Source: an uncultured Ruminococcus sp. (GTDB lineage: Bacteria; Bacillota; Clostridia; Lachnospirales; Lachnospiraceae). Taken from it: a DNA stretch of 64,000 nucleotides. Below are positions 13,690-15,897 of the stretch, piece by piece. A model generated the notes under the pieces. The model saw only the letters and a program-made list of their open reading frames with translations. It did no database searches and was not told the DNA's origin. A program made the translations under genes and the position numbers. Every line of letters starts with the position of its first letter. Position 1 is the first letter of the stretch. The stretch is from assembly GCA_904377845.1 (NCBI GenBank), contig CAJFGR010000014.1, positions 1 to 64,000 of the forward strand, given 5' to 3'.

Positions 13690-13756
13690 TCTGTCAGGCG
13701 TTCAGATAAGAGATGTAAAGAAACTGTGAAAATTCTGTTATTTTCTTAACCTCCTA

Positions 13757-13796
13757 TTGTCAGCGGCAGGGCGGTTACGTTATATTAGTCGTAACC
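13757..13796 (+). promoter_or_regulatory. Promoter with a perfect inverted repeat around its -10 box
   Basis: TTGTCA (13757-13762) and TATATT (13781-13786) form a promoter with an 18-base spacer. GGTTACG (13773-13779) and CGTAACC (13790-13796) are a perfect inverted repeat that brackets the -10 box. A protein bound there would occlude RNA polymerase, so the zinc-ribbon/kinase operon is probably repressed by an unknown regulator. Confidence 0.55.
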
Positions 13797-13823
13797 AATT
13801 ACCAGACAGGAGGATAACAGTAT

Positions 13824-14291
13824 ATGAGTGGATTTTTTTCAGGTTCTGACAGCAGAAGACGCTATCCTAATCCGAATATGGGCGGCAGACATTACAAAAA
13901 GAAAGGTCTGTTCGGCATGATTCCGGGGATGGGAAGCTTTTCCGGTTCCGGCAGTTACAGCGGATATGGCGGTTATCCGAACCAGGGCTACCCGAACCAG
14001 GGCTACCCGAACCAGAGCTACCCGAACCAGGGCTATCCGAACCAGGGCTATCCGAACCAGTCGGGATACCAGCAGAATCCGGCAGGAGGACAGGGGGCGT
14101 TTCAATCGACCGCACCTGCAGCAGGGCAGACGGTATGCCCGAAATGCGGCGCATCTGTTCCGGCGGGGGCCAAGTTCTGCCTGTCCTGCGGGGAAAAGAT
14201 GGCTTCCAATGCCTTATTCTGCCCGAATTGCGGGAAGCCGCTGCCGGCAGGAGCAAAATTCTGCTCTGAGTGCGGAAGTAAAATACAGTAA
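13824..14291 (+). CDS. Tyr/Gly-rich repeat protein with two C-terminal zinc ribbons
   Basis: A 155-residue protein. The N-terminus is basic and Gly/Ser/Tyr-rich (SRRRYPNPN, GSYSGYGGYP). Six tandem YPNQ(G/S) pentapeptides (residues 51-80) and a QNPAGGQGAF linker follow and look disordered. The C-terminus has two zinc ribbons, CPKCGASVPAGAKFCLSCG (about 104-122) and CPNCGKPLPAGAKFCSECG (about 133-151), each with two CxxC pairs. No signal peptide or membrane segment. AGGAGG precedes ATG. Its stop codon overlaps the start of a protein kinase gene (TAATG), which has no clear ribosome site of its own, so the two are translationally coupled. The Tyr/Ser-rich tail could be the kinase substrate (inference). 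Double zinc-ribbon adaptors are common in clostridia; their partners are mostly unknown. Confidence 0.85.
   Translation: MSGFFSGSDSRRRYPNPNMGGRHYKKKGLFGMIPGMGSFSGSGSYSGYGGYPNQGYPNQGYPNQSYPNQGYPNQGYPNQSGYQQNPAGGQGAFQSTAPAAGQTVCPKCGASVPAGAKFCLSCGEKMASNALFCPNCGKPLPAGAKFCSECGSKIQ
13974..14063 (+). repeat. Six 15-bp in-frame tandem repeats encoding YPNQ(G/S)
   Basis: Units of consensus TAYCCGAACCAGGGC, with few differences between copies, encode the pentapeptide repeat of the zinc-ribbon protein. Such near-identical units can change copy number by slippage without shifting the frame. Confidence 0.9.
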
Positions 14292-15004
14292 TGGGGCCGG
14301 CAAAGATTATCAAAAAGATCGGAGATTACACCGTAGCGTCCTGCATAGGAAAAGGGCGCTACGGTGTATGTTTTCTTGCTGTTGCTCCTGATGGCAGGCA
14401 GGTTGTTCTGAAAAGATTCCGGCCGCATATGTTCAGAAAAAATAAGAATGCAAATCATTATGAGGCAGTGATCCTGTCCGGGCTGAGCCATCCGGCGGTT
14501 CCGGAACTGCTGGGGGTGATCAATAACCGGCAGGGTTATTACTATGTTCTTGAGTATAAGGAAGGACCCACGCTGGAACAGTGGCTGTTTGAGCGGAAGA
14601 AAGTATTTAGCTCCGAAGAAATATACAGGATTGGTTCGCAGATATTTGAAGTGCTGGAATATATCCATAGCCGCAATGTAGTACACGGAGATATCAGCGT
14701 GGCAAATGTTACAGATAACGGGGTGAAGATAGCTCTTCTGGATTTCGGGCTCGCCCGGTATGCGGACGGGCAGAATATCAGATTCAGTCTGGATTATGCT
14801 CGCGCGGCAAATGTGCTCCTGTACCTGCTGTATTCGGGCTATGAGGGAAAAGGCAGACGTCCCTGGCACGAGGAGCTTCCGCTTTCCGGAGAGCAGAAAG
14901 AGTTCCTGAAAAAGCTGATGGAACCGGAGGAAAAGTTTAGAGATACCGGGGAGGTACGCAGAGAATTTAAAAATCTTTTCTGCGGAGAAAAGACCCTCTC
15001 CTGA
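14291..15004 (+). CDS. Minimal eukaryote-like Ser/Thr protein kinase
   Basis: A 237-residue soluble kinase domain. The catalytic residues are present: glycine loop GKGRYG (about residues 19-24), ATP-anchoring Lys in VVLKRF, an alpha-C Glu in NHYEAVIL, hinge YVLEYKEGPTLEQWL, catalytic loop HGDISVANV (HxDxxxxN), and metal-binding DFG in LLDFGLARY. What follows is unusual: no GTxxYMAPE activation segment, and the C-lobe is cut down to a few helices. This resembles small Bud32/RIO/Kdo-kinase-like forms more than PrkC/PknB. There are no PASTA or membrane segments. It is coupled to the upstream zinc-ribbon gene. A +1 frame just before its stop continues with acidic sequence (DIPDDETIYEIDLDL) to 15138, so a frameshift-extended form is conceivable. 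Confidence 0.88.
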   Translation: MGPAKIIKKIGDYTVASCIGKGRYGVCFLAVAPDGRQVVLKRFRPHMFRKNKNANHYEAVILSGLSHPAVPELLGVINNRQGYYYVLEYKEGPTLEQWLFERKKVFSSEEIYRIGSQIFEVLEYIHSRNVVHGDISVANVTDNGVKIALLDFGLARYADGQNIRFSLDYARAANVLLYLLYSGYEGKGRRPWHEELPLSGEQKEFLKKLMEPEEKFRDTGEVRREFKNLFCGEKTLS

Positions 15005-15091: not shown

Positions 15092-15120
15092 AGAATCCGA
15101 CAGAAAATTACATAAGATTG

Positions 15121-15214
15121 ATGACAAGGGGAGCTTGTAGTACAGGCTGAGAGGAAGTTGCGAACTTCGACCCATAACCTGATTTGGATAATGCCAACGT
15201 AGGGATGTGTTATG
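15121..15214 (+). ncRNA. TPP (THI-box) riboswitch
   Basis: The conserved thi-box elements are in order: GGGGAGC, then CTGAGAGGAA, a small hairpin (GAAGTTGCGAACTTC), GACCCATAACCTGAT (ACCTGAT being the most conserved block), then GGATAATGCCAACGTAGGGA. It binds thiamine pyrophosphate and turns off the downstream gene. No strong U-tract terminator is visible between it and the gene, so translational control by masking the AGGAGGG site at 15251-15257 is the likelier output. Confidence 0.96.
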
Positions 15215-15264
15215 AGCGCTTTTAGGCCCTTTTGTTTTCAATCTGAGAGCAGGAGGGTTTCGGT

Positions 15265-15897
15265 CTGACCACAGCCGGATATGCGGTCACCATTATTGCC
15301 GGGGTTATACTATTCCTTGCGGCGGTGTTTTTTGCGGCAAAGACGTCTTCCGGAAAGCGGATGAGTACGAAGCAGCTTGTGTTCTGTGCCGTAGGCCTTG
15401 CACTGGCATATCTCACATCCTATATTAAGCTCTTTGAGATGCCTTGGGGCGGGAGCGTGACTTTGTTCAGTATGCTGTTTATCGTATTGATCGCGAATTG
15501 GTACGGGCCGAAGACGGGAGTACTTGTCGGTCTTGCTTACGGGATCATCCAGTTTATCCAGGAGCCGTATGTCCTCTCCTTTTTCCAGGTGTGCTGCGAT
15601 TATATCCTTGCGTTTGCGGCTCTGGGAGTAGCTGGATTTTTTGCGAAGAGCAAATATGGACTGGTAAAGGGATACATAGTTGCAGTGCTGGCAAGAGGTG
15701 TATTTCATGCTCTGGGAGGTTATCTCTACTGGATGGATTATATGCCGGACAACTTCCCGAAAGCGCTGGCAAGTCTGTATCCGATCCTTTACAATTACAG
15801 TTATCTGCTGGTTGAGGGCGTGATCACAGTGATCATTATTTCGATTCCGGCGGTGTCAAAAGCACTGGGAAGGGTAAAACAGATGGCGGCAGAATAA
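15265..15897 (+). CDS. thiT: ThiT, thiamine-binding S component of an ECF transporter
   Basis: About 210 residues with six membrane helices; takes up thiamine with the shared EcfAA'T module, which is not in this window. Ligand-site residues of the family are visible: Trp in EMPWGGS, Glu and Tyr in IQEPYVLS, His in RGVFHALGG, Trp in YLYWMDY, Asn in LYNYSYLL. It follows a TPP riboswitch, which confirms the role. The first helix (TTAGYAVTIIAGVILFLAAV) begins at a CTG codon (15265) seven bases after AGGAGGG. No ATG, GTG or TTG is in frame between the upstream stop (15244) and GTG 15325, and starting there would remove most of helix 1. CTG is therefore the best start, unless an ATG was lost by mutation or sequencing error. 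Confidence 0.9.
   Translation: MTTAGYAVTIIAGVILFLAAVFFAAKTSSGKRMSTKQLVFCAVGLALAYLTSYIKLFEMPWGGSVTLFSMLFIVLIANWYGPKTGVLVGLAYGIIQFIQEPYVLSFFQVCCDYILAFAALGVAGFFAKSKYGLVKGYIVAVLARGVFHALGGYLYWMDYMPDNFPKALASLYPILYNYSYLLVEGVITVIIISIPAVSKALGRVKQMAAE

What the first reader, a model, noticed from the sequence alone, without database searches (positions are those of the whole stretch)
13757..15004. Coupled operon of a Tyr-rich repeat zinc-ribbon protein and a minimal protein kinase
A disordered YPNQ(G/S) repeat plus two zinc ribbons is encoded in one operon with a eukaryote-like kinase that keeps Lys, HxD, Asn and DFG but lacks the activation segment and most of the C-lobe. The stop/start overlap (TAATG) and missing second ribosome site imply fixed stoichiometry. 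Six Tyr residues in the repeats plus nearby Ser make the first protein a plausible substrate. I know of no described bacterial system of this shape; the kinase-substrate link is inference.
Basis: partly seen in the sequence, partly recalled or inferred. Interest (0 to 1): 0.72.

Follow-up and report, generated by a model that had tools for sequence, protein, structure and literature searches.

The report
Bacterial kinase with its own disordered partner
A gut bacterium carries a small protein kinase encoded together with a serine-rich, mostly unfolded zinc-binding protein, and relatives of this pair occur across many bacteria, in clostridia behind promoters typical of spore building, so it is probably a dedicated enzyme-and-target module that I found no description of.

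Summary
Window 13824-14291 encodes a 155-aa protein (Ser/Arg N-terminus, six YPNQ repeats, two zinc ribbons); 14291-15004 encodes a 237-aa Hanks-type kinase overlapping it by TAATG. The pair is conserved far beyond the window: of 93 distinct kinase relatives, 88 have an intact partner in the same cluster (83 upstream, 5 downstream of a third gene) and 5 keep a broken copy or remnant. Catalytic Lys, Glu, His, Asp, Asn and DFG Asp are invariant in 92 of 92. The conserved partner element is not the Tyr repeat (absent in 14 of 47 zinc-type and 28 of 28 clostridial partners scored) but a short G-x-x-[HYF]-Y motif plus a Ser-rich stretch. In clostridia the partner is a Ser/Arg-repeat-like protein, and 20 of 28 such genes carry a sigma-K-like promoter (14 of 1962 control windows), pointing to the spore coat, like the unrelated CotH-CotB/CotG module. 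The window's branch has zinc ribbons and a sigma-A-like promoter. Best reading: a dedicated kinase phosphorylating serines of its disordered partner (inferred; no phosphotransfer or docking shown). The Tyr-substrate, 'missing C-lobe' and fixed-stoichiometry claims are weakened. Eight literature searches listed no description.

The parts
13714..13734 (+). conserved upstream box TGTAAAGAAACTGTGAAAATT (TGTRAA-type direct repeat, 11-nt period)
   Evidence: Regex TGTAAA[AG]AAA..TGTGAAA found upstream of the partner gene in 18 of 23 loci L001-L023, namely L001-L018. Only exact copy in the host genome; 3 further hits with 2 mismatches, against 4 for the reversed control pattern. Regulator unknown.
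13757..13786 (+). sigma-A-like promoter TTGTCA-18-TATATT
   Evidence: Promoter scan 10 of 12 matches (2 sites found in the region against 1.8 expected by shuffling, so the scan alone is weak). TTGNC..TATA[TA]T pair found in 14 of the 18 loci L001-L018.
13778..13799 (.). inverted repeat GTTACG-N10-CGTAAC over the -10 element, possible operator
   Evidence: Sequence; GTTAC-N8..14-GTAAC exact in 5 of 23 loci.
13824..14291 (+). partner protein, 155 aa: Ser/Arg N-terminus, YPNQ repeats, double zinc ribbon
   Evidence: orthologues directly upstream of the kinase in L002-L022, with L019 lacking most of the zinc ribbons and L008, L020 (and L023) frame-broken or truncated; dN/dS 0.061-0.110 in the three comparisons of L001 with L002, L003, L005.
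13824..13970 (+). conserved N-terminal region FFSxSSxRRRYPNPNxGGxHYxKKGxFG plus SFSxSxS; candidate kinase-recognition motif and phosphoacceptor region
   Evidence: Alignment A4 of 46 partners; core motif in 85 of 86 partners against 32.1 of 86 in shuffled N-termini. Role inferred.
13974..14060 (+). six YPNQ(G/S) repeats, lineage-specific linker
   Evidence: no YPxQ in 14 of 47 zinc-type partners.
14136..14276 (+). two zinc ribbons (CPKCG..CLSCG and CPNCG..CSECG), extent of the PF12773 match (residues 105-151)
   Evidence: Pfam PF12773, PF13240.
14291..15004 (+). minimal Hanks-type protein kinase, 237 aa (K41, E58, HGD 132-134, N139, DFG 151-153, D168)
   Evidence: Pfam PF00069 2.8e-25; alignments A1 and of 92 relatives; dN/dS 0.100-0.145 in the three comparisons of L001.
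14327..14368 (+). conserved hairpin (or palindromic site) inside the kinase coding sequence, over the Gly-rich-loop codons
   Evidence: Two 16-nt arms, 94% complementary. Folding z -2.1 to -5.6 against synonymous-codon permutations in L001-L018. Stem codons 0.85 identical against 0.51 outside. No covariation support (covariation term +0.9).

Best explanation
A dedicated kinase-substrate module. The small kinase, which keeps the catalytic residues but has almost no activation segment and so is probably always active, recognises the short N-terminal motif of its partner (GGxHYxKKG here, KGHxYYK in clostridia). It phosphorylates serines in the adjoining Ser/Arg-rich disordered region, changing that region's charge and so the partner's assembly or binding. 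The zinc ribbons of the window branch anchor the partner to another protein or to itself; the YPNQ repeats are a variable linker. In clostridia the same kind of kinase sits with a Ser/Arg-repeat-like protein behind a sigma-K-like promoter, which suggests a spore-coat phosphorylation module working like CotH with CotB/CotG. The window pair is a branch with a sigma-A-like promoter, probably used outside late sporulation. Shown: conservation, linkage, intact active site, purifying selection, promoter patterns. Inferred: kinase activity, motif docking, serine as acceptor, effect on assembly, cellular role.
For: Linkage: 77 of 93 distinct kinases pass an automatic test for a zinc-ribbon or Ser-rich neighbour, against 24 of 1179 control windows in the same loci. 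Inspection gives 88 of 93 intact and 5 broken or remnant. Co-occurrence in 58 congeneric genomes: partner in 21, kinase in 22, all 21 shared. Two phyla: Bacillota and Actinomycetota (Bifidobacterium). Active-site residues invariant in 92 of 92. Median Ser content of 28 third-gene-branch partners 34% with 22% Arg+Lys; at least 7 Ser in the first 50 residues of the other 54 partners scored. N-terminal core motif 85 of 86 against 32.1 shuffled. Sigma-K-like promoter before the Ser-rich gene in 20 of 28 third-gene-branch loci plus 4 of 5 in which that gene lies downstream; dinucleotide shuffles average 0.46 of 28; 14 of 1962 other windows. On the kinase tree the zinc-ribbon and third-gene groups each need one change (support 93/90 and 93/84). 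The known CotH module also pairs a kinase with Ser/Lys/Arg-repeat substrates (PMC7821199, passages).
Against: No phosphotransfer data. The AlphaFold2 read-through chain of L089 showed no docking: the first 45 residues of the partner had pLDDT below 50 (the alignment was flawed, so this is weak). The shuffled control of the core motif is high (32 of 86), since the N-termini are rich in G, Y and H. Eight of 28 third-gene-branch loci lack the sigma-K-like pattern. The pair is in only 22 of 58 genomes of a genus in which SpoIVA is found in 56 of 58, so it is dispensable there. Two clostridial partners are only 12% Ser (L123, L126). Five of 93 kinases have a broken or remnant partner. Bifidobacteria do not sporulate (recalled).
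Confidence: 0.6

Rival explanations
1. The partner is an adaptor or regulator rather than the main substrate: it binds the kinase through its N-terminal motif and brings it to a target via the zinc ribbons or the Ser/Arg tail.
For: Zinc-ribbon-like elements of kinases are known to NCBIfam: the partner scores above the cut-off of NF045510, named 4Cys_prefix_kin (36.8 against 24). The N-terminal motif is better conserved than the repeat region.
Against: Many clostridial partners consist of little but Ser/Arg-rich sequence, and in 5 loci the partner gene lies apart from the kinase, 4 of them with their own sigma-K-like promoter, which suits a structural substrate better than an adaptor.
Confidence: 0.22
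2. Toxin-antitoxin or anti-phage system: the kinase is a toxin or phage-triggered effector and the partner its neutraliser or sensor.
For: Patchy distribution (15 of 391 genomes in a class sample); PADLOC profiles of kinase defence proteins match (mad6 3.6e-30, PD-T4-6 1.6e-24).
Against: The best PADLOC matches cover only the shared kinase core (about residues 10-160), as expected for any Hanks kinase. NCBIfam MAD6 scores 59 against a cut-off of 460. No match at E 1e-15 in 50,697 phage records. Sigma-K-like control in clostridia does not fit. The flanks were not scanned for defence genes.
Confidence: 0.06
3. Chance neighbours or ordinary co-transcription without functional coupling.
For: None found beyond the patchy presence (22 of 58 genomes).
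Against: The pair stays together while most flanking genes change between loci (a ThiT-like gene follows in several Mediterraneibacter loci), across two phyla, with coordinated presence.
Confidence: 0.02
4. The kinase phosphorylates Tyr of the YPNQ repeats, so the module is a Tyr-based switch of a prion-like tail.
For: Six Tyr in the window repeats; up to 12 YPxQ in one relative.
Against: 14 of 47 zinc-type, 7 of 7 no-zinc and 28 of 28 third-gene-branch partners lack YPxQ. L010 has none and keeps an intact kinase.
Confidence: 0.08

Closest known systems
CotH kinase with CotB and CotG (Bacillus subtilis spore coat; PMC7821199, passages read)
   Same: A kinase clustered with Ser/Lys/Arg-repeat disordered proteins that it multiply phosphorylates. 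Here too the clustered partner is Ser/Arg-rich, with a sigma-K-like promoter in clostridia.
   Different: CotH is an atypical Fam20C-related kinase (that paper); this one matches Pfam Pkinase and no CotH family was reported. I know of no zinc-ribbon branch there, and the window branch lacks a sigma-K-like promoter.
Eukaryotic SRPK kinases with SR proteins (recalled; bacterial SR-related proteins by composition in PMC9479744, passages read)
   Same: Arg-Ser repeat tails next to a kinase that is probably constitutively active.
   Different: No splicing in bacteria, no SRPK spacer, a far smaller kinase not specifically related to SRPK: the best PDB profile hits are varied kinases. The passages of PMC9479744 that I read link SR-related proteins to DEAD-box and helicase domains and, in the discussion, to kinase domains; they do not mention this gene pair.
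Bacterial spore kinases (BSK: YtaA/CotI, CotS, YutH, YsxE; PMC2860764, passages read)
   Same: Kinase-like proteins of spore formers, some under sigma-K.
   Different: BSKs are CAK (aminoglycoside-kinase-related) kinases, several linked to glycosyltransferases; no CotS/BSK model appeared in the scans here.
Stk1/PrkC PASTA kinases and Bud32
   Same: Same kinase superfamily; Bud32 is likewise small. NCBIfam 5.8e-16 (PknB_PASTA) and 5.2e-10 (Bud32), both far below cut-offs.
   Different: The window kinase matches only the kinase core of the PASTA model (residues 13-161); the long Hanks kinases L027-L030 lie far off on the tree.
4-Cys prefix kinases (NF045510)
   Same: A zinc-ribbon-like element associated with a kinase; the partner scores 36.8 against a cut-off of 24.
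   Different: There, judging by the model's name, the element precedes a kinase in one chain; here it is a separate protein with a Ser/Arg N-terminus.

Membership tests
Hanks-type (Pkinase) protein kinase | significant match to the Pkinase profile with Lys, Glu, HxD, Asn, DFG | tested here: met
   PF00069 89.7 bits against cut-off 31.7; K, E, H, D, N, D invariant in 92 of 92 relatives.
Hanks-type (Pkinase) protein kinase | APE motif and full activation segment | tested here: not met
   DFG 151-153 is followed by Asp 168 with no APE; Pfam match stops at profile position 152 of 263.
Hanks-type (Pkinase) protein kinase | phosphotransfer to protein | not testable with these tools
   Needs biochemistry.
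Double zinc ribbon protein | two CxxC...CxxC ribbons above Pfam cut-off | tested here: met
   PF12773 50.5 bits against 27.3; PF13240 64.5 against 25.
CotH-CotB/CotG module | kinase of the CotH (Fam20C-like) family | tested here: not met
   No CotH family among Pfam hits up to E 0.1; the kinase is Pkinase.
CotH-CotB/CotG module | clustered Ser/Lys/Arg-repeat partner | tested here: inconclusive
   Met in third-gene-branch relatives: median 34% Ser, 22% Arg+Lys in 28 partners. The window partner itself has only a short Ser/Arg region.
CotH-CotB/CotG module | late sporulation control | tested here: inconclusive
   Sigma-K-like sites in 20 of 28 third-gene-branch loci; in the other loci only L020 and L145; none at the window locus.
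Bacterial spore kinase (BSK/CotS) | APH/CotS-family profile | tested here: not met
   APH PF01636 23.0 bits, just under its cut-off 23.2 and far below Pkinase; no CotS model in NCBIfam hits.
MAD6 / PD-T4-6 defence kinase | whole-protein match above curated cut-off | tested here: not met
   NF047741 59.2 bits against 460. PADLOC matches cover mostly the kinase core; that library shows no cut-off, so PD-T4-6 is not formally excluded.
SR protein / SRPK system | RS-repeat substrate with its dedicated kinase | tested here: inconclusive
   RS repeats next to the kinase in several clostridial loci; no phosphorylation data.

The most novel reading that the evidence does not exclude
A previously unrecognised family of bacterial kinase-disordered-substrate modules, working like SRPK and SR proteins: a minimal constitutive kinase densely phosphorylates a dedicated Ser/Arg-rich low-complexity partner picked by a short N-terminal motif, to control its assembly into a layer or condensate. 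One branch builds clostridial spore coats under sigma-K; another, with zinc ribbons, was turned to vegetative use in gut Lachnospiraceae and passed to bifidobacteria.
Probability: 0.42. Interest if true: 0.86.

Novelty: new variant of a known kind. Interest (0 to 1): 0.74.

Why it matters
If right, clostridia have a spore-coat phosphorylation module built from a classical protein kinase, independent of CotH, and gut commensals, including bifidobacteria, carry a relative with a sigma-A-like promoter in the window's genus whose substrate is encoded next door. Substrates of bacterial Hanks kinases are often poorly defined (my own knowledge); here the candidate substrate, a candidate recognition motif and the likely acceptor residues are all named, so kinase specificity for disordered Ser/Arg repeats in bacteria becomes directly testable in one co-expression experiment.

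Tried and rejected
Tyr-repeat substrate: rejected as the general rule because repeats are missing in many partners. Defence system: the best PADLOC hits are generic kinase-core matches and there is no phage hit at E 1e-15; flanks were not scanned for defence genes. One plasmid search gave two Bacillaceae outgroup kinases; no partner is annotated there, but a short unannotated frame before the Cytobacillus kinase ends in FGHHHYKKHKSKSFFSSFFSS, so even the outgroup may have one; not pursued. A private regulon for the TGTAAA box: one exact site in the genome, 2-mismatch sites no more frequent than control. Link to sporulating species within the genus: uninformative, SpoIVA in 56 of 58 genomes. 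Docking by folding a read-through chain: no docking seen, but I submitted the job in the same turn as the check that showed the kinase N-lobe rows misaligned, so this is not a fair negative. The third protein gave a confident model (mean pLDDT 83.6) with no significant PDB match (best E 0.47), no Pfam match for the two members scanned and no NCBIfam match for the one scanned. Hairpin covariation: not supportive.

Rows dropped before counts: 8 kinases under 200 bits were set aside. The invariance count uses 92 of the 93, because L128 had no upstream ORF and dropped out of the script. L008, L020, L023, L097 and L128 (broken or remnant partners) and L098 (wrong ORF chosen by the script; its true partner was seen) were left out of the partner statistics. 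L116-L119 and L135, whose partner lies downstream, were also left out; four of them were added and L119 dropped. L147 was left out of the tree. The 93-kinase set comes from loci returned. One search kept the best 80 of 159 relatives, so more distant relatives were not examined. In one search the 54 partners outside the third-gene branch include 7 without zinc ribbons; one search splits them (47 and 7).
Full report
What is there. Window 13824-14291 (+) encodes a 155-aa protein and 14291-15004 (+) a 237-aa protein; stop and start share TAATG. The first has a Ser/Arg-rich N-terminus, six YPNQ units in a 15-nt period and two zinc ribbons (PF12773, PF13240). The second is a Hanks-type kinase (PF00069, 2.8e-25). 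The genome is probably Mediterraneibacter, judged by the closest named relatives. The genes follow an SbcD/SbcC-like pair (assigned from the sequences and recall, no family search run) and precede a TPP riboswitch at 15117-15224.

The pair is widespread. A first search of 146 related genomes gave full-length kinase relatives at 31-85% identity in 25 of them besides the own genome (L002-L026). A scan of GTDB species genomes kept the best 80 of 159 confirmed relatives, among them Lachnospiraceae, Oscillospiraceae, Clostridiaceae, Peptostreptococcaceae, Eubacteriaceae, Desulfotomaculaceae, Bacillaceae and Bifidobacteriaceae. A class-level sample gave 15 of 391 genomes at E 1e-30, own genome included; three of the 15 hold only a more distant kinase beside an ABC ATPase (L148-L150) and one a partial hit. 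After removing identical kinase cores there were 101 distinct kinases, 93 at 200 bits or more. An automatic test (zinc ribbon, or at least 35% Ser in some 40-residue stretch, in an ORF ending near the kinase start) was positive for 77 of 93, against 24 of 1179 control windows from the same loci. Of the 16 negatives, 10 have a short upstream partner with the same N-terminal motif (L019, L024, L104, L123, L124, L126, L131, L145, L146, L151, by eye). Five have the Ser-rich partner downstream after a third gene (L116-L118, L135; L119), and L128 has a frame-broken upstream copy. Four of the 77 positives are frame-broken or remnant partners (L008, L020, L023, L097), and L098 was positive through a wrong ORF although its true partner lies about 0.4 kb upstream. 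That leaves 88 of 93 with an intact partner and 5 with a broken or remnant one. Some breaks may be assembly errors. Most flanking genes differ between loci, though a ThiT-like gene follows in several Mediterraneibacter loci. In 58 congeneric genomes the partner N-terminus occurs in 21 and the kinase in 22, with all 21 shared; the one mismatch, G029, has lost the partner N-terminus.

What the partner keeps. The zinc-type partners share FFSxSSxRRRYPNPNxGGxHYxKKGxFG followed by a Ser-rich stretch (A4, 46 rows including four without zinc). Clostridial partners start with motifs such as ESYRGHNYYK and mostly continue as Ser/Arg, Ser/Lys, Ser/Asn or Ser/Tyr repeats, for example RSRSRSRSRSRS in L111. 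A common core, G-x-x-[HYFR]-[YFH] with one spacing variant, is in the first 60 residues of 85 of 86 partners, against 32.1 of 86 for shuffled N-termini, so it is enriched but loose. YPxQ repeats are absent in 14 of 47 zinc-type, 7 of 7 no-zinc and 28 of 28 third-gene-branch partners. Ser is abundant in nearly all (L123 and L126 are only 12% Ser). I therefore read Ser, not Tyr, as the likely acceptor.

The kinase. Lys41, Glu58, His132, Asp134, Asn139, Asp151, Gly153 and Asp168 are invariant in 92 of 92 relatives; Phe152 in 91. dN/dS of the window kinase against three relatives is 0.100-0.145, and of the partner 0.061-0.110 (eight species pairs were run; the nearly identical pairs L012/L013 and L022/L023 gave kinase ratios of 0.59 and 0.47 at very low dS). 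Between DFG and Asp168 only 14 residues remain and APE is missing. An AlphaFold2 model of the L089 partner and kinase, read through one TGA, has a confident C-lobe with helices that I read as alpha-D, alpha-E, alpha-F and further C-terminal helices, and a disordered partner N-terminus. Foldseek finds ordinary protein kinases, including S. aureus PknB 4eqm. So the kinase is compact rather than missing most of its C-lobe.

Two branches. On a maximum-likelihood tree (102 rows; the bootstrap had not settled) the zinc-ribbon kinases form one side of a branch (52 rows, 93/90). The kinases with a third gene form another (34 rows, 93/84), with seven no-zinc kinases near the latter. The third gene, about 190 aa, is in 34 of 101 loci, has no Pfam or NCBIfam match in the members scanned and no significant structural match. 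In the third-gene branch, 20 of 28 partner genes have AC-N15..17-CATAnnnTA (sigma-K consensus, recalled), mostly about 40-60 nt before the start codon, plus 4 of 5 genes in which the partner lies downstream. Dinucleotide shuffles average 0.46 of 28 (maximum 4 in 100), and 14 of 1962 other windows of the same loci, both strands, match. Among the zinc-type and no-zinc loci only L020 and L145 match. The 18 loci L001-L018 instead have a conserved TGTAAA[GA]AAA-TGTGAAA box, and 14 of these 18 a TTGNC..TATA[TA]T pair. I had tested seven promoter patterns in two groups before choosing sigma-K (21 of 30 against 0.3 expected; a relaxed sigma-A pattern was in 48 of 59 loci of the other group against 16.2 expected).

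A nucleic-acid element inside the kinase gene. 14327-14342 and 14353-14368 form a 16-nt stem. Folding is stronger than for permuted synonymous codons in all 18 of L001-L018 (z -2.1 to -5.6) but not in L019-L025 (z -1.0 to 0.8); L079 and L082 also fold strongly. Stem codons are 0.85 identical against 0.51 outside, and the four 14-codon windows starting at codons 10-13 rank first of 89. Pairing holds in 275 of 280 cells but covariation is not supportive. It could be an RNA hairpin controlling kinase translation or a DNA site.

Reading. The dedicated pairing, the intact active site, the Ser-rich disordered partner and the clostridial promoter pattern fit a kinase-substrate module. The nearest functional parallel is CotH with CotB/CotG, in which a kinase multiply phosphorylates Ser/Lys/Arg repeats of clustered coat proteins (PMC7821199, passages). 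The kinase families differ, so this works like that module but is not a member. Bacterial spore kinases (PMC2860764, passages) are another family. SR-related proteins in bacteria are known by composition (PMC9479744, passages); the passages I read do not mention this pair. Eight literature searches listed nothing that, by title and start of abstract, describes it; most subscription papers are not in that library. Phosphorylation, docking and cellular role remain inference.

Noticed in passing
window 14327-14368: Strong conserved hairpin or palindrome over the Gly-rich-loop codons of the kinase, kept at synonymous sites in 18 of 18 close relatives L001-L018.
   Followed up: partly
window 13778-13799: Inverted repeat GTTACG-N10-CGTAAC over the -10 element of the partner promoter, exact in 5 of 23 loci; possible repressor site.
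   Followed up: partly
window 13714-13734: Conserved 11-nt-period TGTAAA/TGTGAA box upstream of the promoter in 18 of 23 loci, resembling a response-regulator site (resemblance recalled); single exact copy in the genome.
   Followed up: partly
L118:3708-4277 and 33 other loci: Third gene of the clostridial clusters, about 190 aa, strongly conserved, no Pfam or NCBIfam match in the members scanned, confident model without a significant PDB match.
   Followed up: partly
L153, about 2800-2960, before the kinase gene: Unannotated short frame before the Cytobacillus outgroup kinase ends in FGHHHYKKHKSKSFFSSFFSS, close to the partner motif; the pairing may be older than the set counted here.
   Followed up: no
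window 15117-15224: TPP riboswitch (RF00059, 67.9 bits) upstream of a ThiT-like ORF at 15325-15897; the ThiT name is recalled.
   Followed up: no
L087, L088, L093, L098: Bifidobacterium genomes carry the zinc-type pair, grouped among the Bacillota zinc-type kinases, which suggests transfer between phyla.
   Followed up: partly
window 14102-14869 (-): Long open frame (255 aa) antisense to both genes; probably a by-product of codon use.
   Followed up: no
L148-L150: More distant small kinases directly downstream of an ABC-transporter ATPase-like gene (name recalled), without a Ser-rich or zinc-ribbon neighbour by the automatic test.
   Followed up: no
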